Below, piece after piece: positions 1-34,703 of a stretch of 34,703 nt of DNA; the stretch's first letter is position 1; each line of letters opens with the position of its first letter. The translations under genes were made by a program, and so were the position numbers. The notes beneath the pieces are model-generated. The model was given only the letters and a program-made list of their open reading frames with translations, made no database searches and was not told the origin of the DNA. Origin of the DNA: a virus; the IMG/VR virus record IMGVR_UViG_3300030451_002755, positions 1-34,703 of that record; one strand, 5' to 3'.

Positions 1-89
1 AGCATCAAAGCTTACGCTGACTCCAAGGTAGATGGCACAGGGGCTGGATCGTTTACTACGCTGGCAGCTTCTGGCGATGTTACGTTTGA
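1..89. repeat. Left copy of 89-bp terminal identity (circular-contig overlap)
   Basis: These 89 bases are identical to the last 89 bases of the window. They lie inside a tail-fibre reading frame that stays open across the join. The simplest reading is that a circular or circularly permuted genome was cut at an arbitrary point, leaving an assembler overlap. A genuine direct terminal repeat inside a fibre gene is possible but less likely. Confidence 0.93.
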
Positions 90-1122: not shown

Positions 1123-2838
1123 ATGGCATATTTTGGCGAAGAAATGGACGTATATCCATACGGACTTTATGATTTTGATGATCCTTATTTAGAAGGAAAT
1201 GTTTCTATAGGGTTTGGTGGTGATTTTGACAATCCACTATTAGGGGCTGATAGAATAGCAAATCTTCAAGGTATTATAGGTCAAATTGCTAGTAGGGCTT
1301 CTGAAATGAGTGGCAATTCTGGTATGTCTATGATTGGAAGACAAGGACGTGATATTGGTGATTTTGCAGGAGGAATATTAGATCCTGACATAAGTGATTC
1401 ATCTTCAGGTTCAAGAGGGGCTTATGATCCTAGTCTTACAAGCGATACAGCTACAAGTCCAGAAGGCATGAGTCCACAACCTCAAACTCCTGCAAGTAGC
1501 TCTTCTCAAGATGGTTCACAAAATAATAATATAAACGAAGGTGCTGATATTTTTGGCGATGATTTAGAGGCTATTGATATGGAAGGAATTTATGGTGGAG
1601 GAACAGGAGACAGTCCCTATGACAGAATGGGTCAAGGCGGTGGTCTTTTAAATCAAATTGTACGGGGTGGACTTACCCTTGGACAAATTTTAGATTCTTT
1701 AAGCAACCAAGAAGGTCCACAAGGAGAGCAGGGTTTACAAGGAATTCAAGGTATTCAAGGAGAACGTGGAGAGCGTGGTGAACGTGGCCTTCAAGGCTTA
1801 CAGGGAATTCAAGGCTTACAGGGAATTCAAGGAGAAAGAGGGCTTCAGGGGCTGCAAGGCATTCAAGGTGAGCGTGGTGAAAGAGGACTCAGGGGAGAAA
1901 TGGGTTTCCGAGGCGAGCAAGGAATCCAAGGAGAACGAGGTTTGCAAGGAATCCAAGGAATCCAAGGAGTACAAGGAGTACAAGGAATTGCTGGTGAACG
2001 TGGTGAAGCAGGCGCTACTGGAGCTACTGGTGCTACTGGCGAACGTGGAGAAAGAGGAGAAAGAGGAGAGCGTGGTGAAAGAGGTGAAAGAGGAGCTACT
2101 GGAACATTTGATGTTTCAAACTTAGAAGCTCTTATGCCTTACCTTACTCCTGGTGAAATTGAGACTTTCCAAGCAGCACAAGTTCCAAAGATATTACCTT
2201 CTGCAATAGGATCTGCTGATGAGGTTCAAGAATTTGCTGAAGAGATGGCTCGTATAGACAAGGAGATTGTCCCAACGCAAGCGGAGGCAGCTCTTGATCT
2301 TTACAGCACAATTACTAGTGGAGTACGTGAAGCACAAAGCCCATTGATGAAATCACTTGCTCGCAGGGCTGAGATGCAAGGAGTGGAAGCTGAAAGGCTA
2401 ATGGGTCCGTTATCTTTCCTTGAGGCTCGCGATGCTACTCAAGCTGGTTATGGTCAGGCTGCTGCACTTGGTAGAGCAATAGATCCTGGACTTCGTGAAC
2501 AGCAAGCAGGACGTTTGCGTGAAGAGCAAAAGAACGTAAACTTGCAGCTTGCAAGCAATCTTCTTGGTCAGCAAAGAGCTACTGCTGGATTGATGTCAGA
2601 TATTGAAACTGGCATTTATGGCAGAATGGCTCCTGAGATTGGAGTAGATCCTGGTCAAGTTATTGGAATTGCTGGAACTGATATTCAGAATCTCCTTGGC
2701 GCTCAGATTGCAGCTCAAGCAGCTCAAGCAGAACGAGAAAGTGGAAGAAGAGCGCAGCAGTCTAAAATGCTTGAGATAGGAACTAGTTTAATTCCTAAGT
2801 TTACTATTCCTGGAACTGGCATTACTATTGGAGGATAA
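1123..2838 (+). CDS. Collagen-like virion protein with helical C-terminal domain
   Basis: The protein has 571 aa in three parts. Residues 1-197 are acidic and low-complexity (Gly/Ser/Asp-rich). About residues 198-326 form roughly 43 uninterrupted Gly-X-Y triplets, mostly GIQ, GLQ and GER with a GATGATGATG patch near the end, so a collagen-type triple-helical stalk. Residues 327-571 are Ala/Gln-rich and helical, including QNLLGAQIAAQAAQAERESG, a style seen in internal virion proteins of podoviruses. The strong ribosome site AAGGAT sits 8 nt before ATG. It lies between the fibre and two large candidate ejection proteins, which supports a structural role: either a fibre-like rod or an internal protein with a trimeric collagen segment. 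Prolines are almost absent from the triplets, as usual in bacterial and phage collagens. Confidence 0.75.
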   Translation: MAYFGEEMDVYPYGLYDFDDPYLEGNVSIGFGGDFDNPLLGADRIANLQGIIGQIASRASEMSGNSGMSMIGRQGRDIGDFAGGILDPDISDSSSGSRGAYDPSLTSDTATSPEGMSPQPQTPASSSSQDGSQNNNINEGADIFGDDLEAIDMEGIYGGGTGDSPYDRMGQGGGLLNQIVRGGLTLGQILDSLSNQEGPQGEQGLQGIQGIQGERGERGERGLQGLQGIQGLQGIQGERGLQGLQGIQGERGERGLRGEMGFRGEQGIQGERGLQGIQGIQGVQGVQGIAGERGEAGATGATGATGERGERGERGERGERGERGATGTFDVSNLEALMPYLTPGEIETFQAAQVPKILPSAIGSADEVQEFAEEMARIDKEIVPTQAEAALDLYSTITSGVREAQSPLMKSLARRAEMQGVEAERLMGPLSFLEARDATQAGYGQAAALGRAIDPGLREQQAGRLREEQKNVNLQLASNLLGQQRATAGLMSDIETGIYGRMAPEIGVDPGQVIGIAGTDIQNLLGAQIAAQAAQAERESGRRAQQSKMLEIGTSLIPKFTIPGTGITIGG

Positions 2839-7649: not shown

Positions 7650-7684
7650 AAAAAGGGCAGCAGGTTTTTACGCCCACTGCCCTT
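7648..7684 (-). terminator. Rho-independent terminator of the leftward arm
   Basis: An 8-bp inverted repeat, AAGGGCAG/CTGCCCTT, with a 16-nt loop, is flanked by seven A residues on the plus strand. Read leftwards this gives a GC-rich stem followed by a T7 tract, a classical intrinsic terminator for the early operon. Read rightwards there is no U-tract after the stem, so it should not stop the late arm efficiently. A second 7-bp hairpin (TCAGATC/GATCTGA, 7710-7729) lies just beyond, at the end of the early arm. Confidence 0.8.
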
Positions 7685-7923: not shown

Positions 7924-8340
7924 CTATTTAGATTCGTTTGTCAACTCCCTGATGAGTACCCTGTACTTCTCCTTTGTCTGTGGCCTTTTGGCTCTCTTGA
8001 TCCTACGCCTGTACTCTCTGATTATCTTGTCTTTCTCTGTCTTGTGTTTAGGGTGAATAGGATTGCTGGAATAGTCCTTATTCTTGTACTCTATTAGGGA
8101 AATTAGGACATCCTCGTAAGAGGCTCCCAGAGGCCGTATAAATCGTTTGTAAGAATTCCAAACCCTCCCCTCGAAGGAATTTACTTCACGCTGTAGAACG
8201 CATCTGATGGCTCCTGAGGTATGGTCATGGTCCAAAACTGGATCTGTAATCTGCAATCCCGTAATTGGATCTTGTCCTCCTTGCTGCTCTAGGAGTTCTT
8301 CCCTTAATTTTTTGATTTCAGATTGTTTCAGTTTCTTCAT
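7924..8340 (-). CDS. Endonuclease VII-like HNH nuclease
   Basis: A 138-aa protein from the chosen ATG. It resembles the phage recombination endonuclease VII (His-Me finger) family, which in T4 cleaves branched DNA before packaging. Visible signature: DHDH at residues 37-40, the Gly-X-Ile-Arg turn (TSGAIR) and a catalytic-type Asn54 in VNSFEGRV, followed by a long basic C-terminal region (RRRIKRAKRP). The Cys pairs that normally bind structural zinc are missing: QDPITG stands where CxxC is expected. I chose ATG 8340 because the longer frame from 8367 begins further inside the upstream gene. It is most likely a debranching or junction-resolving nuclease. Confidence 0.7.
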   Translation of the reverse strand: MKKLKQSEIKKLREELLEQQGGQDPITGLQITDPVLDHDHTSGAIRCVLQREVNSFEGRVWNSYKRFIRPLGASYEDVLISLIEYKNKDYSSNPIHPKHKTEKDKIIREYRRRIKRAKRPQTKEKYRVLIRELTNESK

Positions 8341-8539
8341 CGTACTCAATAAAATCCCTATCATCAAACCACATGGTCTTCTTGTTGGGCATAATCTTAG
8401 ATACGTTTATCTTCACTAAGCCTTCCATGTAAGCCAGTGGCTCGTGCAGAGTTTCCTTCATTGTCTCAACATCTTTTTTAGATAGCCAGCAGTTAGACCC
8501 ATCCCCGATAAAACGATAATACTTTCTCCTAGCTACCAT
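8318..8539 (-). CDS. Small hypothetical protein, 73 aa
   Basis: A 73-aa protein, basic at the start (MVARRKYYRF) and acidic at the end (EYDEETETI), with no family recognised. Its 3' end overlaps the start of the endonuclease VII-like gene. Its ATG shares a base with the stop of the gene upstream (TAATG), so translation is probably coupled. It sits in a run of short overlapping early genes. Confidence 0.6.
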   Translation of the reverse strand: MVARRKYYRFIGDGSNCWLSKKDVETMKETLHEPLAYMEGLVKINVSKIMPNKKTMWFDDRDFIEYDEETETI

Positions 8540-8781
8540 TATCCCATAACCTTGTGTTCTTGCCTGTACTCTTCCCAGTCCTTTATTTCTTCAACGATCC
8601 AGTCAAGGGACTCCTTGTTAAGTACAGCTTGGTCTACTATCTCGTGTATGATGTCATCCTTAACGCCACCTAAAAGCCTAGTAAGCTTCACTGTTATTAA
8701 GTCTACCTGATCTTGGTAGTTCTGGGCCATCATAAGAAGCTCCATTGCCTCTGATACTTCACCTACTTGCAGTGTCTTCAT
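8539..8781 (-). CDS. Small hypothetical protein, 80 aa
   Basis: An 80-aa acidic, mostly helical protein (for example SEAMELLMMAQNYQDQVDL and WIVEEIKDWEEYRQE). No catalytic motif or family is recognised. The start overlaps the upstream stop by 4 nt (ATGA) and the stop overlaps the downstream start by 1 nt, indicating translational coupling in the early operon. Confidence 0.6.
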   Translation of the reverse strand: MKTLQVGEVSEAMELLMMAQNYQDQVDLITVKLTRLLGGVKDDIIHEIVDQAVLNKESLDWIVEEIKDWEEYRQEHKVMG

Positions 8782-9122
8782 AACTCGTTTACCCTTTCTT
8801 CAATAAATCTTTGCATCCAGACCTCAAGAATCCTGATCGTCTCTTCAGGGAGCAGTGAAGCCTCGGAGTACACTAGCATATCGTTCTCATCATCTATGTC
8901 TATCACCTTCTGGTAGAACATCGTGACTTGATCCATTAGTGTCTTACCTAGTTCTGTCTTGCATATCTGCCTAACTGGAAACATATGGTAACCTACTGGC
9001 ATAAGATCGCCAGTACACCCTCCTCCGATCATAGGAGCTACGCTTTCTTGCACGTACCCTGAATCAGAAGAGAGCATCTCTTTTACTTGTAATGCTAGTT
9101 CCTTGAATTCCTCTTGTATCAT
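8778..9122 (-). CDS. Hypothetical protein, 114 aa
   Basis: A 114-aa acidic protein without a recognised domain. A Gly-rich stretch (APMIGGGCTGDLMPVG) sits between two helical regions, and the C-terminus (WMQRFIEERVNEL) is probably a helix. It overlaps both neighbours by 4 nt (ATGA-type). The function is unknown; the operon suggests an early role in host takeover or DNA metabolism. Confidence 0.6.
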   Translation of the reverse strand: MIQEEFKELALQVKEMLSSDSGYVQESVAPMIGGGCTGDLMPVGYHMFPVRQICKTELGKTLMDQVTMFYQKVIDIDDENDMLVYSEASLLPEETIRILEVWMQRFIEERVNEL

Positions 9123-9319
9123 CCTTGTCTGTAAAAAACGTCAATGTGTCCTGGCTGCACTTGGTATCCTACTCCTTCTATAGCAGGAGCAACAAGTTCA
9201 TCAAGCACTTCATGGAGCATCATGTCAACTTCATCTGATGCTACAGTGCAGGTTTTGTGCGGGGTCTTAAAGGTAAGCACGTACCTTTGGTGACAATTAG
9301 GGCAGGTTTCTTCTTTCAT
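9119..9319 (-). CDS. Small zinc-ribbon-like protein, 66 aa
   Basis: A 66-aa protein starting with a possible single zinc-binding knuckle: CPNC at residues 6-9 followed by HKTC about 15 residues later. The rest is acidic, with a helix (EVDMMLHEVLDELVAPAIEG) and a short beta-like end. No family is named. It overlaps both neighbours by 4 nt. Single zinc knuckles are common in small phage proteins that bind nucleic acid or host polymerase, but that role is only a possibility here. Confidence 0.6.
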   Translation of the reverse strand: MKEETCPNCHQRYVLTFKTPHKTCTVASDEVDMMLHEVLDELVAPAIEGVGYQVQPGHIDVFYRQG

Positions 9320-9645
9320 GGGTAATCGATTTTGTTTTCCTTTCTTTCTTCAATCATTGCTAAAGCTATTGTACAGTACCCGATAATATCCTCGAAGGCA
9401 TCTTGTACGTGTTCGCCTTCTACAGCAAGCGAGTTCGTCTTGCAGAATGTCTGAACTCTCTTAACCTTGTCTCCCATCCTTACGCACAGGCCAACAAGAG
9501 GATCTACTCCGTAGTCCCTAGCTTGCTCGAAGTTAGCGAAAGCATTAGAACTTCTAGCCGTGTAATCGTTGTTCTTGTCTTTTAATACCTTCGATATTTT
9601 AGAGAACAAACTCTTAGTGAACTCTTCAAACTTTTCTTTTATCAT
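9316..9645 (-). CDS. DUF1599 / MazG-like all-alpha nucleotide-associated protein
   Basis: A 109-aa all-helical protein. The pattern NNDYTARSSNAFANF, then GLCVRMGDKVKRVQTF, then VEGEHVQDAFEDIIGYCTIA, resembles the DUF1599 / nucleotide-modification-associated family related to all-alpha NTP pyrophosphatases (MazG, dUTPase). In those enzymes acidic helices bind magnesium and nucleotide; the E-x-x-x-D-x-x-x-D pattern is present here. It is probably a nucleotide-pool or modified-base housekeeping enzyme. It is translationally coupled to the phosphoesterase gene upstream, which fits a nucleotide-metabolism pair. The family call rests on the motif pattern alone. Confidence 0.6.
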   Translation of the reverse strand: MIKEKFEEFTKSLFSKISKVLKDKNNDYTARSSNAFANFEQARDYGVDPLVGLCVRMGDKVKRVQTFCKTNSLAVEGEHVQDAFEDIIGYCTIALAMIEERKENKIDYP

Positions 9646-10289
9646 AATTCCATTAAGTAATTCGTAGCTACCTTACCTTGCTGTACTACACCACAACCGA
9701 TAGCTGGATGAGGGCCGTACTTACCGTAAGCCATAGCGTAACTGTCCTTGTCTATGCCAGATCCTAGTTGCATTCCGAACACCTTGCACTTAGCCCCTGT
9801 ATGCCACTGTACGTAGCACTCAGAGTGGTAGTGTCCCTGAACAACTGACTGCATATCCTGCTTGGCTCTCTGGATAGCTTTCTTTCCATCGCCATGACAG
9901 TACACTACATTATCTATCGTAACGCTCTCAACGAACTGCCAGCCAGGAGCCTCAAGAACTTCACTGTACTCTCTGACCCACCGCTTTGATATTCCAGCAG
10001 TGTAAGCCTTGCGATGGACTAGCCTATCGTGATTGCCTATACAGACGTAAGCTTCAGGGAAAGCCCTGTACCATTTACCTATTCTCTGTATAGCCCTGTC
10101 TAGTTCTTCGCCAGCAGAGTAGCCATCGGGGTCTGTCTCGTGGTAACTGCTGTAATGGTTGTCGATGACATCACCGATAAGCACAACTTTATTGCATCCA
10201 GTCTTACGATCCACGTTCTTACAGAACCTGAGGTATTTGTCTAAGCAAAAAGGCTCATGCAAATCCCCGATGGCTAAAACTACTGACAT
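9642..10289 (-). CDS. Calcineurin-type metallophosphoesterase
   Basis: A 215-aa protein with the full metallophosphoesterase motif series: GDLH (8-11), GDVIDNH (39-45), GNHD (85-88), a His at 132 in CHGDG and GHYH (152-155). These residues hold a two-metal centre that hydrolyses phosphomonoesters or phosphodiesters. The length is that of the compact, single-domain phage forms, without an added capping domain. The substrate is unknown: DNA ends, cyclic nucleotides or protein phosphate are all possible. It lies between the DUF1599-like gene (4-nt overlap) and the gene downstream of the SSB, which favours a DNA or nucleotide role. Confidence 0.85.
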   Translation of the reverse strand: MSVVLAIGDLHEPFCLDKYLRFCKNVDRKTGCNKVVLIGDVIDNHYSSYHETDPDGYSAGEELDRAIQRIGKWYRAFPEAYVCIGNHDRLVHRKAYTAGISKRWVREYSEVLEAPGWQFVESVTIDNVVYCHGDGKKAIQRAKQDMQSVVQGHYHSECYVQWHTGAKCKVFGMQLGSGIDKDSYAMAYGKYGPHPAIGCGVVQQGKVATNYLMEL

Positions 10290-10297
10290 AACACCAA

Positions 10298-10714
10298 CTA
10301 AAACAATCTACTAATAGCTAATTCTTGCATCAGTACCCTGATTTCTTCCACTTCCTTGTCAAGAGCGTTCACTAGTAGTAGCTCTACTCCTGCAAGGGTC
10401 AGCTCCTCGGTAGTGATCTCGCGTACCTTTGGTGCTGTTTGAACTTCACCACTTTTATCAACGTAAGTGGTAGTATCTTCTTTGTACTTGAACTTAGGAG
10501 GATCTTCAGTCTTGTACACTTTAACGTCTCCATCTATGTAAAGACTGGCGTCAGTAGCGTATACTTCAGTCCCCTTCTCGTATTTACTGAGAGGGGAACC
10601 TTTGTATATTAGACCGAATGTTGATCCATCCTTGCGAGCAAGCTGGAAGTTGTTAGCGGCGCCTTTGTACACCTGCTTAACAAGCTTCCCTTGAATCCAT
10701 TTAGTCTCGCTCAT
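10298..10714 (-). CDS. Hypothetical protein of the replication operon, 138 aa
   Basis: No family is recognised. The N-terminal two-thirds look beta-rich (WIQGKLVKQVYKGAANNFQL, SKYEKGTEVYATDASLYI), perhaps an OB-like or SH3-like barrel. The C-terminus is helical and Leu/Glu-rich. The ATG at 10714 lies 2 nt after the SSB stop codon; a GTG at 10723 would add three residues and is less likely. Close linkage to the SSB-like gene suggests a partner in DNA replication or recombination, but the sequence itself gives no function. Confidence 0.55.
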   Translation of the reverse strand: MSETKWIQGKLVKQVYKGAANNFQLARKDGSTFGLIYKGSPLSKYEKGTEVYATDASLYIDGDVKVYKTEDPPKFKYKEDTTTYVDKSGEVQTAPKVREITTEELTLAGVELLLVNALDKEVEEIRVLMQELAISRLF

Positions 10715-10716
10715 GC

Positions 10717-11454
10717 CTACCACGGTAGATCGTCGTCGTCATCGTCAGCAGCGGCAGCCATGACAGGAATGTTCTTAGGCTCTTGCTTCTCCTGTTCAGC
10801 AGGAGTCATAGACCTGTTAGCTTTACGCTCCTCGAAGGTAGCATGGTTATCCTGGATGAAACGATTAACCGTGTCTAAGAAGAAGTTATTCTGCTTAGTG
10901 TAATCGTAGTACGTCTTGTCTCCGATCTTAGCGGATTCCGCTTCAGGTATGCCAACGTACTTGCCGTTCTCCCAAGGGAAAGCGGATGCGATATTAGCAC
11001 CACCTTGCTGCATCGTAATGTAGATCGGGATGCTGGTATGCTCGTTGCCTTGGGGATCTTTGTACTTGTAGGCTCCCTTAACATTAGTCCAAGTGGATAT
11101 GCTGATAGGAGAATGCACAGAGATGTTAGGAACCTTCTTGGCAATACCCTTGAAGTCAGTGCTTAACTTGCCTTCCTTCTTCCATACAGGCACAGACAAA
11201 ACGTCTACCCCTTGCTCATGGTTCAGTCCAATGTTTAGAACGTCACCGTACATTCCGTTGTCGATCCATAAGGATTCGATATTACCGAACAAGTTGTCAG
11301 TAGTGTACTGCCAGCGTTGCCCAGGTGATGGCCGAGTGTACTTGTGCAGCACTCTCCCGTCATTAGCTTCAGAAGCGTTAATGTTCTGGTCACGGCATTT
11401 GCTCCAGTAACCTCCATTAGTGTTATCTTTTTTCCAGTATCGTGTATCTCTCAT
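10717..11454 (-). CDS. Single-stranded DNA-binding protein (SSB-like, acidic tail)
   Basis: A 245-aa protein ending in DDDDDDLPW, the acidic tail with terminal bulky residues that SSBs of phages and bacteria use to recruit partner enzymes. The body has many aromatic and basic residues (RYWKKDNTNGGYW, SPGQRWQYTTDNLF, TYYDYTKQNNFF), suited to stacking with ssDNA bases. A flexible linker rich in Glu, Lys, Pro and Ala precedes the tail. I see no close match to the bacterial SSB core, so it is probably a divergent phage OB-fold protein. It is transcribed directly after the helicase with a 3-bp gap, forming a replication pair. Confidence 0.7.
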   Translation of the reverse strand: MRDTRYWKKDNTNGGYWSKCRDQNINASEANDGRVLHKYTRPSPGQRWQYTTDNLFGNIESLWIDNGMYGDVLNIGLNHEQGVDVLSVPVWKKEGKLSTDFKGIAKKVPNISVHSPISISTWTNVKGAYKYKDPQGNEHTSIPIYITMQQGGANIASAFPWENGKYVGIPEAESAKIGDKTYYDYTKQNNFFLDTVNRFIQDNHATFEERKANRSMTPAEQEKQEPKNIPVMAAAADDDDDDLPW

Positions 11455-11457
11455 GTT

Positions 11458-12834
11458 TTATTGGTTTCTTGTTTTGTACTCGTAATTAAACTCGTACTGT
11501 TGATGGTGAAATGAAGCGGAAACATCACTCCATATATCGTAATCTTGCAGATCTCTACTCAATGTCAAGTCCCCGAATGACTTAATCCTTGATAGGGCTG
11601 TGTACGTCAAGCCAGGAGCCATAGGCACTTGCCTTGGTAGCTGTAGGTGTACCTTGTTCAGTGTACTACCTTGGCTGGAGTGGATCGTCATACTGTACCC
11701 AAGCTGGATAGGGAACTGTACGTACTCTCCCTTGCTCTCGTCAGTAATCTTTTCTTCTCCATCCTTGATCGTAACTTTAGGCGTACTGTCTTGGTACTTC
11801 TTTGGCTTCAGGTAAATGATAGTGTTGTCGGAGTCTCTGTGGATTATCATTCTTCCACGTTTATCAAGTCCGTAGAACGTGCCAGTATCTCCGTTCACGA
11901 TCCTTTGCATTACTCCCATAACTTTGTACGTCATGTTTGCTTTCACTACTACACGACAGAACTCCTTCAGATAAATGTTCTCTTCGATTGGAAGGTCCTT
12001 GTCTCGCTTCTTCTTGAATGATCCAGAGCGAGTGGCAGAAAAACACAATAGCCTTCCTGGGAGTTCACTAAGCTTCTCCTTATTAATGTTGTCACGTATT
12101 TTCCTTAGTGGAGTCAGTATAACTGCCTTACTATCAGGAGGTTGCACTCGTGTATTCAGATAATCAATATCTATCTTAGTCTGCTGACCTACCCTAATTC
12201 TGTTCAAGATGTTAGCTTCGATAGGATTTTCTTGGCGTATAACTTTCGTAAGTGTAACTCTGTGGAAGTCATCGTTCAGTACATTGCTTTGAAATAATCC
12301 GAACGGATTCTTGTAACCGTAGCGTTTCAAGGTCTGAGCATCTCTACCTTGTGCAACTGGTGGAAGCTGACCGACATCTCCAACGCACAGAATCTTAGCA
12401 CCTCCGAACGGCTCGAAAGATCCACGAGCTTTACGCAAAGCAGCTTCGATGAAGTCAAGGTGATCGCACCTTACCATGCCTATCTCGTCTAGGATAATCC
12501 ATGAGCAATGTTTCAGGACTTCCCTGCGTTGACCTCCGAAGTACCTGCAAGAAGGATCAGTAAATCTCTGTGCGTGTACTGGCTTCTCCTTAAAGTCTGG
12601 ATTGATTGGATGCGTTGACGGTATCCCGAACAGCTTATGTATCGTACTACCTCCAATGATTGTAGCTGCTCTACCTGTAGGTGCAGCCAGGATTGTGTTA
12701 CCGAATGTCTTTACTATCTCTTTAATTAAGTAAGATTTACCTGTACCTGCTGACCCAAAACATATCAGTCTACCTCCTTGCTTACCTGTCAGCATACAGT
12801 CCATCACGTACTGTTGTTCTATTGTTAATCCCAT
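11458..12834 (-). CDS. SF1 DNA helicase, Dda/RecD/Pif1-like
   Basis: A 458-aa helicase with motifs in order: Walker A GSAGTGKS (27-34), motif Ia LAAPTGRAA (49-57), TIHKLFG (64-70), Walker B LDEI (115-118), motif III GDVGQLPP (152-159), and near the C-terminus YSMTIHSSQGSTL (motif V) and YTALSRIKS (motif VI). This is the SF1B 5'-to-3' arrangement of Dda, RecD2 and Pif1. The length is that of compact phage Dda proteins. It probably unwinds DNA at replication forks or restarts replication using the neighbouring SSB. A good ribosome site (AAAGGATTGAA before ATG) lies immediately downstream of a structured RNA region, so its expression may be controlled post-transcriptionally. Confidence 0.92.
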   Translation of the reverse strand: MGLTIEQQYVMDCMLTGKQGGRLICFGSAGTGKSYLIKEIVKTFGNTILAAPTGRAATIIGGSTIHKLFGIPSTHPINPDFKEKPVHAQRFTDPSCRYFGGQRREVLKHCSWIILDEIGMVRCDHLDFIEAALRKARGSFEPFGGAKILCVGDVGQLPPVAQGRDAQTLKRYGYKNPFGLFQSNVLNDDFHRVTLTKVIRQENPIEANILNRIRVGQQTKIDIDYLNTRVQPPDSKAVILTPLRKIRDNINKEKLSELPGRLLCFSATRSGSFKKKRDKDLPIEENIYLKEFCRVVVKANMTYKVMGVMQRIVNGDTGTFYGLDKRGRMIIHRDSDNTIIYLKPKKYQDSTPKVTIKDGEEKITDESKGEYVQFPIQLGYSMTIHSSQGSTLNKVHLQLPRQVPMAPGLTYTALSRIKSFGDLTLSRDLQDYDIWSDVSASFHHQQYEFNYEYKTRNQ

Positions 12835-12853
12835 TTCAATCCTTTATTTTTGA

Positions 12854-13187
12854 ACTTCTTACCAAGCCGCCCATAAGAGGGGGTCCTTATCGGCGGTGGC
12901 ACTAATAAGTGCGTTTAGTAAGAAGTAAGTATTTTCTGTCCTCTAATCCCTGAATAGATTTATGTATCTGGACACAGTTAGCCCCTCCTGAGAGGAGCTA
13001 ACAGTCTATCCTTCATCCCTAGAATGAGTCAATGTAGAGCTGTTGCTTGGAGAGACTCGGTAAGTCAATATGATCTCCTTGATCCAAGCGTTAGCCATCG
13101 CTGTGCGATACGTTTTACCACCAGTCGGGCAATTCCTGGCAACCGATGTCCCTTGTACCACTGGTACGCCTGTTCTCAAGGCAAGGG
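12854..13187 (-). ncRNA. Candidate structured RNA (two three-way junctions plus hairpins)
   Basis: A gene-free interval with dense base-pairing on the minus strand. (a) 13150-13154 pairs with 13183-13187, closing two abutting hairpins, 13155-13167 (GUACC stem) and 13168-13182 (GCCU/AGGC), with no unpaired junction bases. (b) Hairpin 13097-13109. (c) A 7-bp helix 13045-13051/13083-13089 encloses hairpin 13054-13066. (d) Hairpin 13013-13027. (e) An 11-bp hairpin at 12977-13002 with a 4-nt loop. (f) A 12-bp helix 12854-12865/12915-12926 encloses hairpins 12867-12896 and 12899-12912. Helices d, e and f each have a G-U on the minus strand that would be C-A on the plus strand, so the minus strand is the RNA. 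It ends beside the helicase ribosome site. It is either a leader or a separate RNA; no known class is recognised. Confidence 0.6.
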
Positions 13188-13213
13188 CGCGCTAAACTGA
13201 GAGGCATCATACA

Positions 13214-13462
13214 CTACCTGTCAAGCCTACCTTCTTTTTCGTACAGGTGCTCGAAGATATTCTTAAGCTCATCTCTGGCCTCCTCGATGTCCTCGATCAC
13301 TAAACGGGTGAGGTTATGAGGCAATCTGTTTTCAACCAGGTACGATACCATCCTGTCTAGGTGATACTCTAGTTTCTCCATCTCCCAATGGGAGTACAGT
13401 GAAGTCTTCAGGTCATTTGGATCTATCCCCAGTTTCTTCAAGGCTACTGTCTTGTACTTCAT
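13214..13462 (-). CDS. Small hypothetical protein, 82 aa
   Basis: An 82-aa, highly charged, probably all-helical protein (EKLEYHLDRMVSYLVENRL, VIEDIEEARDELKNIFEHL), no family recognised. It overlaps the upstream gene by 4 nt (ATGA). It is the last gene before the structured-RNA interval and helicase, so its transcript probably runs into that RNA unless processed. Confidence 0.6.
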   Translation of the reverse strand: MKYKTVALKKLGIDPNDLKTSLYSHWEMEKLEYHLDRMVSYLVENRLPHNLTRLVIEDIEEARDELKNIFEHLYEKEGRLDR

Positions 13463-13698
13463 GACTCGCCCCCTTCTTCTTCGATAATTTCATGAACAGA
13501 ATTTACTATTTGTTTAATTATAAATATCTTATGTTCGTCGATGAGGTCCAAAGCATCATTTCTTATGTTAGAGAATAATTCTTTTAGCACTTCGGGAGGG
13601 TCCATTTTGTCGAGGACGGTTTCTAAAGCGGATATGCCCCTTAGCATGCCCATGTGTATGTATCTGTCTACTAGATCTTTATGTACGTAATCACTCAT
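13459..13698 (-). CDS. Small hypothetical protein, 79 aa
   Basis: A 79-aa acidic helical protein (LKELFSNIRNDALDLIDEHK, ending EIIEEEGGES), no family recognised. A ribosome site (AGGAG within ATAGGAGATAAATAATATG) precedes the ATG. It is translationally coupled to the next gene by a 4-nt overlap. Confidence 0.6.
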   Translation of the reverse strand: MSDYVHKDLVDRYIHMGMLRGISALETVLDKMDPPEVLKELFSNIRNDALDLIDEHKIFIIKQIVNSVHEIIEEEGGES

Positions 13699-13718
13699 AT
13701 TATTTATCTCCTATTCAG

Positions 13719-13922
13719 TTAATATATTCGTTTCAATACTTCTTCGTACACAAAGCTCGAATCATCGTTAAGAACATCCAGCTCTGCGTCTGTCATTGGC
13801 CGTCCATCGTAATCCGCTTTCAGGATGTACGAATCTACGAAGTCGGGGTAATCGCTAGTATCAATGTGCATATCAATACTAGCCATGTCTATTTTGTCAT
13901 AATGTATCTCTATCTGTTTCAT
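13719..13922 (-). CDS. Small hypothetical protein, 67 aa
   Basis: A 67-aa acidic protein (MKQIEIHYDKIDMASIDMH...), no family recognised. I chose the ATG that overlaps the upstream stop as ATGA, with GGAG just before it, over a TTG 12 nt earlier. It is rich in Asp and Tyr. It belongs to a chain of short, coupled early genes. Confidence 0.55.
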   Translation of the reverse strand: MKQIEIHYDKIDMASIDMHIDTSDYPDFVDSYILKADYDGRPMTDAELDVLNDDSSFVYEEVLKRIY

Positions 13923-14311
13923 ACTCCAGACCAAGTAAGCTCCTTTGACTTTCTCATTATGGATCGTGTAACGAGATCTTCCAAGTCTCGTTTCATTATG
14001 TTATCAATGGCGATCCTTCTTACCTCACGAACCTCATCCTCAGTAATAGGGTTCACCATATCAGTGATCCTTTTTACCTCAGCAGCAAACGCAGCTTCGC
14101 ACATATTCGTAGGCACTTCTACTCTCAAGTCCTCGATGGAGATAGACTTCAGCTTAGAAAGATCGTAACCTTTTTTCTTTAAGGCGTGTCTTTGTCTGTG
14201 TCCAATTATCGAGTTCTTGCTCCAAGAGATAATCTTATCTCCGTAAACAATGACGAATCTCTTACCATCATTGTACTTTTTGTCGAGTAGATGTTGATCT
14301 ACCTGTATCAT
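13919..14311 (-). CDS. Hypothetical protein, 130 aa
   Basis: A 130-aa basic protein, not assigned. The N-terminal half looks like a small alpha/beta unit with a basic stretch (GHRQRHALKKKGYDLSKLKS). The C-terminal half is helical with many Arg residues (EDEVREVRRIAIDNIMKR). Basic charge suggests nucleic-acid binding, but no motif settles it. The start overlaps a 40-aa basic ORF upstream (ATGA) and has a good AGGAGG ribosome site inside that ORF. The stop overlaps the next gene. Confidence 0.6.
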   Translation of the reverse strand: MIQVDQHLLDKKYNDGKRFVIVYGDKIISWSKNSIIGHRQRHALKKKGYDLSKLKSISIEDLRVEVPTNMCEAAFAAEVKRITDMVNPITEDEVREVRRIAIDNIMKRDLEDLVTRSIMRKSKELTWSGV

Positions 14312-14430
14312 TTCTTCCTCCTTTTCTTGGGTGTATGGCGTGGTCCTTTATTGGCTTTAGGCTTCTTTGGCTTAAAGTTGTGGCGTTTTTCAAGACCCTT
14401 AATTGGCGCTCTTAGTATTCCTAGTGACAT
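14308..14430 (-). CDS. Very small basic protein, 40 aa
   Basis: A 40-codon frame that fills the gap between two early genes. It begins MSLGILRAPIKGLEKRHNFK and continues as a tail of Lys, Arg and Pro ending KKRRKK. A purine-rich ribosome site (GAAGGGAAGAAG) precedes the ATG. The first 11 codons overlap the end of the upstream gene in another frame, and the stop overlaps the next gene as ATGA. About half the residues are Lys, Arg, His or Pro, suggesting an unstructured nucleic-acid- or ribosome-binding peptide. Function unknown. Coupling at the 3' end supports it being translated. Confidence 0.55.
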   Translation of the reverse strand: MSLGILRAPIKGLEKRHNFKPKKPKANKGPRHTPKKRRKK

Positions 14431-14698
14431 TCTTCTTCCCTTCTAGCATATCTTTCATCCAGTTGTTATTACTCTCTGCGTACCCGAACCTATCGAGATC
14501 CCTGTACGCTACTACAATGTCATGCGGCACTCTCTGTGCCACAGAGTAGTACTTGTACCTACCAAGAACCTTGCGATCCTTGATAGGGCAGTACCCACGT
14601 TCTTCGATCCTTGGATTTTCTATTATCTGCCAATGATCGTACCTATATTGCTGTGCGTCTCCGCAACTTATGCCGTACTTGTTCTTGTCTAGCTCCAC
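14399..14698 (-). CDS. Hypothetical protein, 99 aa
   Basis: A 99-aa protein rich in Tyr, Arg and Asp (QQYRYDHWQIIENPRIEERG, GRYKYYSVAQRVPHDIVVAY), no family recognised. Its start overlaps the upstream gene by 10 nt and its 3' end overlaps the 40-aa basic ORF. It probably forms a small folded domain, given the balanced hydrophobic and aromatic content. Confidence 0.58.
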   Translation of the reverse strand: MELDKNKYGISCGDAQQYRYDHWQIIENPRIEERGYCPIKDRKVLGRYKYYSVAQRVPHDIVVAYRDLDRFGYAESNNNWMKDMLEGKKNVTRNTKSAN

Positions 14699-14925
14699 GC
14701 TTCACCTCTTTCTACTATTTCTTCTGCTGCATTTTGTGCGCAGATTTCTATAGCTTCTTCCTCGATTCTTTCAAGGACTTTATCATCCAAGAGATCAGAG
14801 ATTTCCTGTATTGAGCCAGGTAGCCATACGCCATCTACGTACGGTTCTGAAGGGTCGAAGGTATCGAGTGTAACGTCGAACTTTGTGTCGTGTACTTTAA
14901 CTTCTATTGTGAATTTGGGTTTCAT
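14689..14925 (-). CDS. Small acidic hypothetical protein, 78 aa
   Basis: A 78-aa strongly acidic protein. The N-terminal 30 residues look like beta strands (KFTIEVKVHDTKFDVTLDTF). The C-terminus is a Glu/Ile-rich helix (EEEAIEICAQNAAEEIVE). Acidic small proteins in early phage operons are sometimes DNA mimics or host-enzyme inhibitors, but nothing here proves that. Its ATG directly follows the upstream stop. Confidence 0.57.
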   Translation of the reverse strand: MKPKFTIEVKVHDTKFDVTLDTFDPSEPYVDGVWLPGSIQEISDLLDDKVLERIEEEAIEICAQNAAEEIVERGEAWS

Positions 14926-15204
14926 TTATGGCTTCAGGTTACATTCTCCAGCTTCGAGCTGGCTTTGTGCGTTACTGAATACATTGTCTAGGCGTCTATC
15001 AAGATCGTCTATACCCTGCATTCTTCCTCTGTAGAAGATCTCTTGTGCGTCGAGATCTAACTCCTCACGTATGCACTGCCCTAGCATCTTATTGATGTAG
15101 TCCAGTTGCATATCAGCAGCTTCTAAGAATCCATTCTTGATGTCCTGCCGAACGTCATTAATGAATCCGCGAGCTGTGGTTATTGTGCGTGTTGTGTATT
15201 TCAT
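14926..15204 (-). CDS. Hypothetical helical protein, 92 aa
   Basis: A 92-aa protein dominated by helices (AADMQLDYINKMLGQCIREE, MQGIDDLDRRLDNVFSNAQS), no family recognised. The start follows closely on a 34-aa membrane peptide gene. It is adjacent, without a gap, to the acidic 78-aa gene. Confidence 0.58.
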   Translation of the reverse strand: MKYTTRTITTARGFINDVRQDIKNGFLEAADMQLDYINKMLGQCIREELDLDAQEIFYRGRMQGIDDLDRRLDNVFSNAQSQLEAGECNLKP

Positions 15205-15207
15205 GTC

Positions 15208-15312
15208 TTATTTTACGATTAGGTTAATAAATAGCGAGTACGCTATTGCGAGTATTGATACAGCTATGGAAGCAGCAGTCAAGATTTCTAGGATTTTTTC
15301 TAGTTTATTCAT
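15208..15312 (-). CDS. Single-span membrane peptide, 34 aa
   Basis: A 34-codon frame in an otherwise unexplained gap: a short charged N-terminus (MNKLEKILEI) followed by one hydrophobic segment (LTAASIAVSILAIAYSLFIN) and a C-terminal Lys. AAAGGA lies 8 nt before the ATG. An in-frame ATG 18 nt upstream is a weaker alternative because it precedes that ribosome site. It should insert in the inner membrane. Candidate roles are superinfection exclusion, lysis timing or regulation of a host membrane protein; none is shown. The next gene starts within a few bases of its stop. Confidence 0.55.
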   Translation of the reverse strand: MNKLEKILEILTAASIAVSILAIAYSLFINLIVK

Positions 15313-15332
15313 TAATCCAGTTCCTTTCATCG

Positions 15333-15536
15333 TTATTTAATGCATTCAAATCTGCAAATCTCCTCCATAGTTCGAACGGATAGCTTGCCGTAATCCTCCG
15401 CGCTTAGCGTACCGTTCTGATAATGGCGTTCGATTTTCTTGTCTATCGCTTCCAACTCTGCCAGGCCAGCAAGGTCTATCTTCCTGGCGTAGTGTTTGGC
15501 AACGTCTTTCTGTGTCTCTTTCAGTAGTGATTTCAT
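15333..15536 (-). CDS. Small hypothetical protein, 67 aa
   Basis: A 67-aa, charged, helical protein (AKHYARKIDLAGLAELEAID, RTMEEICRFECIK), no family recognised. A good GAAAGGAAATCACC leader precedes the ATG. It sits between two genes encoding tiny membrane peptides. Confidence 0.57.
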   Translation of the reverse strand: MKSLLKETQKDVAKHYARKIDLAGLAELEAIDKKIERHYQNGTLSAEDYGKLSVRTMEEICRFECIK

Positions 15537-15555
15537 GATGGTGATTTCCTTTCGT

Positions 15556-15801
15556 TTAGCTAAATAATTGAGGGCATAAATACACTACCAAAGTGTCAAA
15601 GCTGCGAACCTCTTTGCATCGGATCAGCCCCTCGGCCTCCATCCTCAAAAACTCCTCAGCGACCTCGACCTCTCGACCCACGTATACGCCATCCTTGTAT
15701 ACCTCTGACGCTATCTCATCAATCACTCGACAGTCATAGCGGTAGAGTCGTTTTCCTTTCTCGGTGATGGCGCGAATGATTCTGTTTCTAATTTCGTTCA
15801 T
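15556..15801 (-). CDS. Small winged-helix-like hypothetical protein, 81 aa
   Basis: An 81-aa protein. Helical N-terminus with basic residues (IRNRIIRAITEKGKRLYRYD), a central helix pair and a beta-like end (LIRCKEVRSFDTLVVYL). The layout helix, turn, helix, then a hairpin of the type 'AEGLIRCK...LVVYL' resembles a winged helix, so a small DNA-binding regulator is possible. No family is recognised. The start overlaps the stop of a 30-aa membrane peptide (ATGA), and GAGAGGAAATC gives a ribosome site. Confidence 0.55.
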   Translation of the reverse strand: MNEIRNRIIRAITEKGKRLYRYDCRVIDEIASEVYKDGVYVGREVEVAEEFLRMEAEGLIRCKEVRSFDTLVVYLCPQLFS

Positions 15802-15890
15802 GATTTTGATTTCCTCTCGTTTATTTTGATCATTAGCATCGATGCAAGAACAATTATGCCCGCAATAAATCGTATTGTTTCAACCTCCAT
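15798..15890 (-). CDS. Single-span membrane peptide, 30 aa
   Basis: A 30-codon frame between two early genes. It begins MEVETIRF, has one hydrophobic span (IAGIIVLASMLMI) and ends with a basic tail (KINERKSKS), so the tail is expected on the cytoplasmic side. Its ATG is 2 nt after the upstream stop and its TGA overlaps the next ATG. It is the second mini membrane protein in this arm. Function unknown; a membrane-targeted host-takeover or exclusion role is possible. Confidence 0.5.
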   Translation of the reverse strand: MEVETIRFIAGIIVLASMLMIKINERKSKS

Positions 15891-15892
15891 AA

Positions 15893-16501
15893 CTACCGAC
15901 CCCAGCTTTCCTTGATCGTTACCCATAGGATCGCTTGAAACTCGAACCCTTTATAGCCATGATCACGTGCAATTTCTGCCGTGATTCGCTCAATCCGTCG
16001 ATACTGTTTAGCCGTTACGGATTCCACGGTGTCGATGATTCCTTGCTCTGGAGAGCATAGGCACGCGCGAATGTGCCACTTGTCGATGGTTATATGCTCA
16101 CTTGATAGGTGAGCAATGTTCATTGCAAAGGAATGCGTTTTTGGTGAACTTTCTGCAATCAATTCGCCATCGAGAATCCGAAACGCTTTGCGTTTGTTTG
16201 CTCCGTACGTACAAACCTTCACGCTATCCGCATCGAGTCCCGCTTGCCATGCGTTAATCACTGCAATGGCGTCAATTTTGTTTCTTTCCCATTTATTATT
16301 CGGAGAGAGAGCGGATACAACTGCCGCAACTTTGTATCGATCAACCCCGAATTTTTCTGCCGTTTCAATGGTGAACTTGCGTGCATCTGCGTACCAATTC
16401 GCGCCATCATGGCGATTTTCTAAACTTGAAACTCTAAACCATTTTGAGAGATTCAAGCGAATGTTTTTGTCGTCTGTTTTTGTAACGGTTTTCTTATCCA
16501 T
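15893..16501 (-). CDS. Phage protein resembling HhH-glycosylase-like DUF7178 family
   Basis: About 202 aa, the first gene of the early arm. The pattern VSALSPNNKWERNKIDA, then ANKRKAFRILDGE, then KTHSFAMNIA, then ITIDKWHIRACL and a C-terminal helix pair (RRIERITAEIARDHGYKGFE), recalls a group of phage proteins with a helix-hairpin-helix glycosylase-like fold and a conserved Asp in 'TIDxxH'. A DNA-binding or base-processing role is plausible but unproven. The start is uncertain: ATG 16501 has GGAG only 1 nt away, and a TTG at 16537 would add 12 residues without a clear ribosome site. Codon choice (more GCG, CGA, TCG) differs from the genes below it, hinting at a separate origin. Confidence 0.55.
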   Translation of the reverse strand: MDKKTVTKTDDKNIRLNLSKWFRVSSLENRHDGANWYADARKFTIETAEKFGVDRYKVAAVVSALSPNNKWERNKIDAIAVINAWQAGLDADSVKVCTYGANKRKAFRILDGELIAESSPKTHSFAMNIAHLSSEHITIDKWHIRACLCSPEQGIIDTVESVTAKQYRRIERITAEIARDHGYKGFEFQAILWVTIKESWGR

Positions 16502-16548
16502 GCTCCAAAAATTGGGGAAAAGAGCGGAAAAGATCAAGAATTATCTTT

Positions 16549-34213: not shown

Positions 34214-34703
34214 TGGCAATACTTACAACAGGAAACACGTTTGCTAACGGAGATCAAGTAACGGCAGCTACCTTAAACAGTGCAGTTAATGATGCTGAGT
34301 TTGCTGCTGGAGCAGTAGACGGTACATCTACTCAACTTTCTGGCACAAGTCCTCAACAAATTATTGTTAAGGATGCAGGTATTAGCACTGGCAAAATTGC
34401 TACTGGTGCTGTAACTACTGATAAGATTAATGCAGGTGCTGTTACGACTGCTAAGATTGCAGACAGCAATGTTACTAAGGCTAAGATCGAAGATTTTACT
34501 AATCTTACTGTCTTGGGTAATGTTTCTGGAAGTGCTGCTACTCCTGCTGAAGTAACTATTTTAGATGAGGACAACATGGCCTCAGACTCTGCTACATCCC
34601 TTGCTACACAGCAGAGCATCAAAGCTTACGCTGACTCCAAGGTAGATGGCACAGGGGCTGGATCGTTTACTACGCTGGCAGCTTCTGGCGATGTTACGTT
34701 TGA
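34213..34703 (+). CDS. Tail fibre protein, N-terminal part (continues at base 1)
   Basis: It starts MAILTTGNTFANGDQVTAAT, with Thr/Ala/Ile repeats (ISTGKIATGAVTTDKINAGA, VTTAKIADSNVTKAKIED), the 'TTAKIADGAV' shaft style found in many podovirus fibres. It is then cut by the window end. Its frame continues without break at base 1 of the window, giving a 503-aa protein. The ATG is coupled to the nozzle-like gene (TAATG). It attaches the fibre to the tail and ends in the receptor-binding tip. Confidence 0.85.
   Translation, partial: MAILTTGNTFANGDQVTAATLNSAVNDAEFAAGAVDGTSTQLSGTSPQQIIVKDAGISTGKIATGAVTTDKINAGAVTTAKIADSNVTKAKIEDFTNLTVLGNVSGSAATPAEVTILDEDNMASDSATSLATQQSIKAYADSKVDGTGAGSFTTLAASGDVTF
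34615..34703. repeat. Right copy of 89-bp terminal identity (circular-contig overlap)
   Basis: Base-for-base identical to positions 1-89. Removing one copy gives a 34,614-bp circle with the fibre gene intact. Confidence 0.93.

What the first reader, a model, noticed from the sequence alone, without database searches (positions are those of the whole stretch)
12854..13187. Unrecognised structured RNA in the early operon, strand fixed by G-U pairs
In a genome packed with overlapping genes, about 375 bp is gene-free and forms at least ten helices. They include two three-way junctions (13150-13187, with no unpaired junction bases; 12854-12926, closed by 12 bp) and an 11-bp hairpin (12977-13002). 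Three helices (12977-13002, 13013-13027, 12854-12926) each contain one G-U on the minus strand that would be a C-A mismatch on the plus strand. That favours a functional RNA read with the operon. I do not recognise a riboswitch, intron, tRNA or RNase P pattern. It may be a new phage ncRNA or a large cis-leader of the helicase-SSB unit.
Basis: partly seen in the sequence, partly recalled or inferred. Interest (0 to 1): 0.78.

Follow-up and report, generated by a model that had tools for sequence, protein, structure and literature searches.

The report
New structured RNA in marine phages
A group of ocean viruses that infect bacteria carry a folded RNA of about 245 letters next to a DNA-unwinding enzyme gene; comparison across about 20 related viruses shows the folding is real, it matches no known RNA family, and its job is still unknown.

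Summary
The 379-bp gene-free gap (12835-13213, minus strand) before a Dda/PIF1-like helicase gene has two parts. (1) A ~245-nt core (12944-13187) occurs, intact or cut by a contig end, in every related phage found that has this helicase and enough upstream sequence (13 distinct complete sequences). Eight helices are kept in 99.7% of cells. Seven base pairs change on both sides, which none of 500 shuffles reach. Pairs number 539 Watson-Crick, 26 G-U and 1 A-C on the minus strand, so the RNA strand is fixed. There is no conserved reading frame. The core is 79% identical where helicase third codon positions are 56%. (2) The 12854-12926 junction is a variable spacer: absent in most relatives, a short hairpin in some, rearranged in others. 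The 13013-13027 helix is specific to this window.

Rfam gives no match; searches find the core only in this phage clade. Leader and spacer reassort around the unchanged core. Helicase ribosome-binding sites are predicted mostly unpaired and lie 15-117 nt from the core. No terminator follows. I therefore favour an autonomous RNA of the replication module over a translational or attenuation leader, but cannot decide. New RNA family, function unproven.

The parts
12944..13187 (-). conserved RNA core, ~245 nt, eight comparative helices
13150..13187 (-). P1-P3: three-way junction CCCUU/AAGGG closing GCCU/AGGC and GUACC/GGUAC; stems invariant, loops and junction length vary
13121..13139 (-). P5 hairpin CCAG/CUGG (CUAG/CUAG in L040: C-G to U-A)
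13097..13109 (-). P6 hairpin AUCGC/GCGAU (AUUGC/GCAAU in five distinct relatives)
13045..13089 (-). P7/P8 stacked hairpin with 6-nt bulge and conserved 18-nt loop; five pairs with changes on both sides
12977..13002 (-). P10, 11-bp hairpin in this phage (9 modelled pairs); G-U/G-C and U-G/C-G exchanges
13142..13146 (-). possible pseudoknot arm UCGGU, complementary to ACCGA at 13057-13061; both invariant, so untested
   Evidence: inference
12854..12926 (-). variable spacer element: 12-bp closed three-way junction, present only in some relatives; its base stem has one compensatory change (L152)
12868..12895 (-). inner hairpin CGCCGAUAAG..CUCUUAUGGGCG, also in L040/L152 but placed between core and spacer stem
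12840..12845 (-). helicase Shine-Dalgarno-like AAAGGA, in an A-rich linker predicted mostly unpaired
11458..12834 (-). Dda/PIF1-like helicase gene directly downstream
13214..13462 (-). 82-aa gene of unknown function directly upstream, conserved in relatives

Best explanation
The core (12944-13187, minus strand) is a genuine structured RNA family, restricted as far as I can see to one marine phage clade and tied to its Dda-helicase replication module. SHOWN: compensatory base pairs, G-U strand asymmetry, no conserved frame, slow evolution, association with the helicase module, independent exchange of the sequences on both sides. INFERRED: it is transcribed within the early polycistronic mRNA, folds on its own, and works as an autonomous RNA (probably held by a phage or host protein, possibly cut out of the transcript) that serves phage replication or takeover, rather than by gating the helicase ribosome-binding site or a terminator. 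That it is a real RNA I hold at about 0.95; the autonomous mechanism at about 0.45.
For: Covariation: 7 of 42 pairs change on both sides, 99.7% of cells paired, 0/500 shuffles, slid controls 30-50% paired. An unbiased scan of all possible helices ranks P8, P7 and P6 first; column-order shuffles never give a helix with three double changes (0/200) and reach two helices with two or more in 6/200. Strand: 26 G-U against 1 A-C. Held-out relatives match the three-sequence model R1 at E 1e-66 to 1e-82 and score 57-67 bits above a sequence-only model. Core 79.3% identical between window and L040, where helicase third positions are 56.2%. All four combinations of leader type (A/B) and spacer (with/without) occur around the core. 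Helicase SD mostly unpaired in nearly all. No minus-strand terminator-like site except at 7653-7684, the end of the cluster. Core found in all relatives with the helicase and upstream sequence, and in none of eleven terminase-related phages without it.
Against: No expression data, so transcription, ends and abundance are unknown. The stems of the three-way junction never vary and P10 never changes on both sides. Relatives are few (13 distinct complete cores, roughly 79% identical or more to the window). The core always lies just upstream of the same gene, as a cis element would, though gene order is conserved anyway. No target, partner or phenotype. SD accessibility is a prediction only and is partial in L004 and L012.
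Confidence: 0.45

Rival explanations
1. Cis-regulatory leader: the core is an aptamer or protein operator controlling translation or stability of the helicase-SSB-like mRNA, with the variable spacer as expression platform.
For: Always directly upstream of the helicase gene. A conserved core with variable downstream part is the usual layout of riboswitches and leaders. In phages without spacer the last conserved bases abut the Shine-Dalgarno. Strand P10-5' (GUUAG..) can pair either with GGGGCUAAY or with a second GGCUAAY copy between P6 and P7, a possible switch.
Against: SD predicted mostly unpaired in nearly all relatives; distance and structure between core and ATG change from 15 to 117 nt; no terminator; the alternative pairing is no rarer than expected for a 250-nt RNA (own estimate).
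Confidence: 0.33
2. Cis-acting RNA antiterminator of the HK022 put or EAR kind, modifying RNA polymerase so that the replication half of the early operon is transcribed.
For: Sits at the border between small early genes and the replication genes, on the transcript strand; such RNAs act without coupling to a ribosome-binding site (own knowledge).
Against: Several times larger than put (own knowledge); no intervening terminator seen that would need to be read through; no sequence test possible.
Confidence: 0.1
3. Replication-origin RNA: a structured transcript that primes or guides initiation (ColE1 RNA II or T4 R-loop style) in a phage without recognisable polymerase, primase or initiator.
For: Tied to a Dda-type helicase; no polymerase, primase or initiator recognised among the proteins scanned, and the DnaB and replication-initiation genes of Phage C75C1 have no match here.
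Against: No GC-skew change at 13 kb; skew follows gene direction. Most proteins of the phage are unidentified, so an initiator may be missed.
Confidence: 0.07
4. Not a functional RNA: DNA-level inverted repeats or a hidden protein.
For: Antisense fold z-scores are similar for the core alone; inverted repeats also covary in DNA.
Against: 26 G-U against 1 A-C in the supported helices fixes the RNA strand; single-base indels and stops in all frames.
Confidence: 0.03

Closest known systems
Orphan large phage RNAs GOLLD and ROOL
   Same: Phage-encoded, structured, multi-helix, covariation-supported, function unknown (PMC12286853).
   Different: Those are larger, often lie near tRNA islands and have Rfam models; here ~245 nt, next to a replication helicase, no tRNA and no Rfam match.
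manA and wcaG motifs of marine metagenomes and cyanophages
   Same: Structured RNAs known almost only from marine metagenomes and phages, associated with a downstream gene (PMC2864571).
   Different: Cis motifs tied to metabolism genes; their Rfam models do not match here.
Phage-derived trans-acting sRNAs such as lambda PreS
   Same: Phage RNA in an early region that favours phage DNA replication (PMC12197685).
   Different: PreS is ~88 nt and Hfq-dependent; here a 245-nt multi-helix fold without a terminator-like U tail.
phi29 pRNA
   Same: Structured phage RNA with a mechanical role in an RNP (general knowledge).
   Different: Packaging RNA not tied to a helicase; no Rfam match here.

Membership tests
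any of 4227 Rfam 15 families | bit score at or above the family's gathering cut-off | tested here: not met
   No hit at gathering over the window; best permissive hits 12-18 bits against cut-offs of 38-100
tRNA / tmRNA | ARAGORN-recognised fold | tested here: not met
   0 genes
GOLLD / ROOL | match to the Rfam model and location near tRNA genes | tested here: not met
group I / group II intron | Rfam intron core and an interrupted gene | tested here: not met
   No Rfam intron match; flanking frames look complete
translational riboswitch / leader | conserved pairing that can hide the downstream ribosome-binding site | tested here: inconclusive
   SD predicted mostly unpaired and at variable distance; ligand or protein dependence not testable
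transcription attenuator | intrinsic terminator after the structured core | tested here: not met
   No terminator-like site on the minus strand near 12835-13213
Hfq-type trans sRNA | 3' terminator with U tail and Hfq binding | tested here: not met
   No terminator-like 3' end; Hfq binding not testable
HK022 put-type antiterminator | RNA-dependent read-through of terminators | not testable with these tools
   needs transcription assays
structured RNA in general | compensatory changes beyond chance and strand-specific G-U pairs | tested here: met

The most novel reading that the evidence does not exclude
The RNA is an essential, stand-alone component of the replication machinery of this phage clade (for instance a primer or guide RNA, or an RNA-protein complex with the Dda-type helicase or its SSB-like partner) that replaces a protein initiator.
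Probability: 0.08. Interest if true: 0.88.

Novelty: new variant of a known kind. Interest (0 to 1): 0.55.

Why it matters
If it acts on its own, it would be one of few large structured RNAs in a small phage with a testable place in replication or takeover. The alignment and covariance model make the question directly testable by SHAPE, RNA-seq and deletion once a host is in hand.

Tried and rejected
Rfam at gathering and at E<=10: nothing. blastn of the 2-kb region and of the core against 50,697 phage records: nothing. Three DNA patterns in IMG/VR: only the same clade, plus chance hits (L023, L031 and L041, apparently protein-coding; L122, L123, no model match). One pattern in GTDB genomes: two hits (L156, L157) rejected by the covariance model. 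Covariance search of 398 genomes of one phylum and of eleven terminase-related phages, C75C1 among them: nothing. Helicase searches by a clade alignment and by the L040 helicase: same clade plus L152. Terminase search of GTDB genomes for a host: none. Hairpin scan of IMG/VR failed because I mistyped the pattern; repeated on 22 records with the right pattern. W-only ORF 13006-13179 rejected as coding. Sigma-70 promoter sites no more frequent than chance. Origin by GC skew: no signal.

Full report
OBSERVATION. The window is a 34,703-bp phage record (a virus record) with an identical 89-bp repeat at both ends, so probably a complete genome. That it is marine is inferred from my knowledge of the sample ids of its relatives, not from a tool. 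Its nearest isolate record is Phage C75C1 (terminase 76%, capsid 63% identical). The minus-strand cluster 8.3-16.5 kb is tightly packed, except for 379 bp between an 82-aa gene and a Dda/PIF1-like helicase. On the minus strand these 379 nt fold better than shuffles (z -3.96, 0/100), on the plus strand less so (z -2.06).

RELATIVES. The helicase has seventeen close relatives (90-93% identity) in IMG/VR that retain its 5' end, and DNA patterns added L032 and the more distant L040 contig (helicase 81%). L152 is a further partial relative of L040, and L057 carries the first part of the core at its contig end. Every such contig with enough upstream sequence carries a ~245-nt conserved core immediately before the helicase gene, cut off by the contig end in L005, L057 and L152. 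The core has 1-nt insertions and deletions and stops in all frames. It is 79.3% identical between window and L040, where helicase codon positions are 83.6, 91.1 and 56.2% identical.

STRUCTURE. A covariance model from three sequences finds all other complete cores at E 1e-66 to 1e-82 and scores held-out ones 57-67 bits above a sequence-only model (part of that gain reflects model building). On the resulting alignment eight helices are 99.7% paired and seven pairs have changes on both sides; 0/500 shuffles reach this and slid partners fall to 30-50% paired. Double changes lie in P5, P6, P7 and P8. The three-way junction P1-P3 is invariant in its stems while its loops and junction length vary, and P10 has only one-sided changes. 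An unbiased scan of all possible helices ranks P8, P7 and P6 first. With column order shuffled, which keeps relatedness, a helix with three double changes never appeared in 200 runs, and two helices with two or more appeared in 6. In the RNA sense there are 539 Watson-Crick, 26 G-U and 1 A-C cells, so the minus-strand transcript is the folded molecule. Fold energy alone is modest for the core (z about -2 to -5 among relatives, and similar antisense); the comparative evidence carries the case.

WHAT IS NOT CONSERVED. The 12854-12926 junction is the most stable piece (z -6.0) but belongs to a spacer between core and start codon that most relatives lack. L001, L007 and L015 have a short hairpin there; in L040 and L152 the inner CCGCC..GGCGG hairpin lies between core and spacer stem instead. 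The spacer stem has one compensatory change (U-A to G-C in L152), so it is probably RNA too, but weakly supported (82/500 shuffles reach it). The leader upstream of the core exists in two unrelated types. All four leader-spacer combinations occur (A with spacer: window, L001, L015, L040; A without: L004, L016; B without: L002 and others; B with: L007). The core is therefore a self-contained module.

FUNCTION. I tested the usual ways a leader works. The helicase Shine-Dalgarno region is predicted mostly unpaired in nearly all phages, partly paired in L004 and L012. The start codon lies about 15-16 nt after the core in spacer-less phages, 66 nt in three, and more than 100 nt in the window and L040. 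No intrinsic terminator follows. These are predictions, but they lower the chance of translational or attenuation control. The RNA goes with the Dda-helicase module: eleven phages with related terminases, C75C1 among them, have no match to this helicase and no core, and the DnaB and replication-initiation genes of C75C1 have no match in the window. Some of those records are fragments. I therefore favour an autonomous RNA serving replication or takeover (about 45%), ahead of a cis leader (33%), an RNA antiterminator (10%), a replication-origin RNA (7%) and no functional RNA (3%). Transcription, ends, partner and phenotype are all untested.

KNOWN OR NEW. No Rfam family matches, and the papers found describe no such RNA next to a phage helicase (a partial library). 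It resembles orphan phage RNAs (GOLLD, ROOL) and marine motifs (manA, wcaG) in kind, but belongs to none of them by test. It is a new family of a known kind, limited so far to one clade.

Noticed in passing
L021 5995-6100: A different phage contig carries about 27 codons of the helicase start, nearly identical to the window, then diverges and stops; no RNA core precedes it. Looks like a small recombination scar.
   Followed up: partly
window 12868-12895; L040 931-960: The same CCGCC..GGCGG hairpin lies at two different places relative to the spacer stem in two phages; not found in 20 other records.
   Followed up: partly
window 13090-13096 and 12977-12987 (-): Two copies of GGCUAAY in the core can both pair with the 5' strand of P10 (GUUAG..), a possible alternative pairing.
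   Followed up: partly
window 10717-11454 (-): 245-aa protein without family match ends in DDDDDDLPW, like the acidic tip of SSB proteins; in L040 it ends in EDDFEW.
   Followed up: no
window 8318-16537: The early/replication region shares almost nothing with that of Phage C75C1, although terminase and other late proteins are about 40-76% identical: a module swap.
   Followed up: partly
window 1-89 and 34615-34703: Identical 89-bp repeat at both ends: circular or terminally redundant complete genome.
   Followed up: no
window 1123-2838: 571-aa protein with many collagen-like triplet repeats, tail-fibre region.
   Followed up: no
window 15893-16537 (-): First gene of the early cluster is DUF7178 (PF23802), shared with several terminase-related phages.
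   Followed up: no
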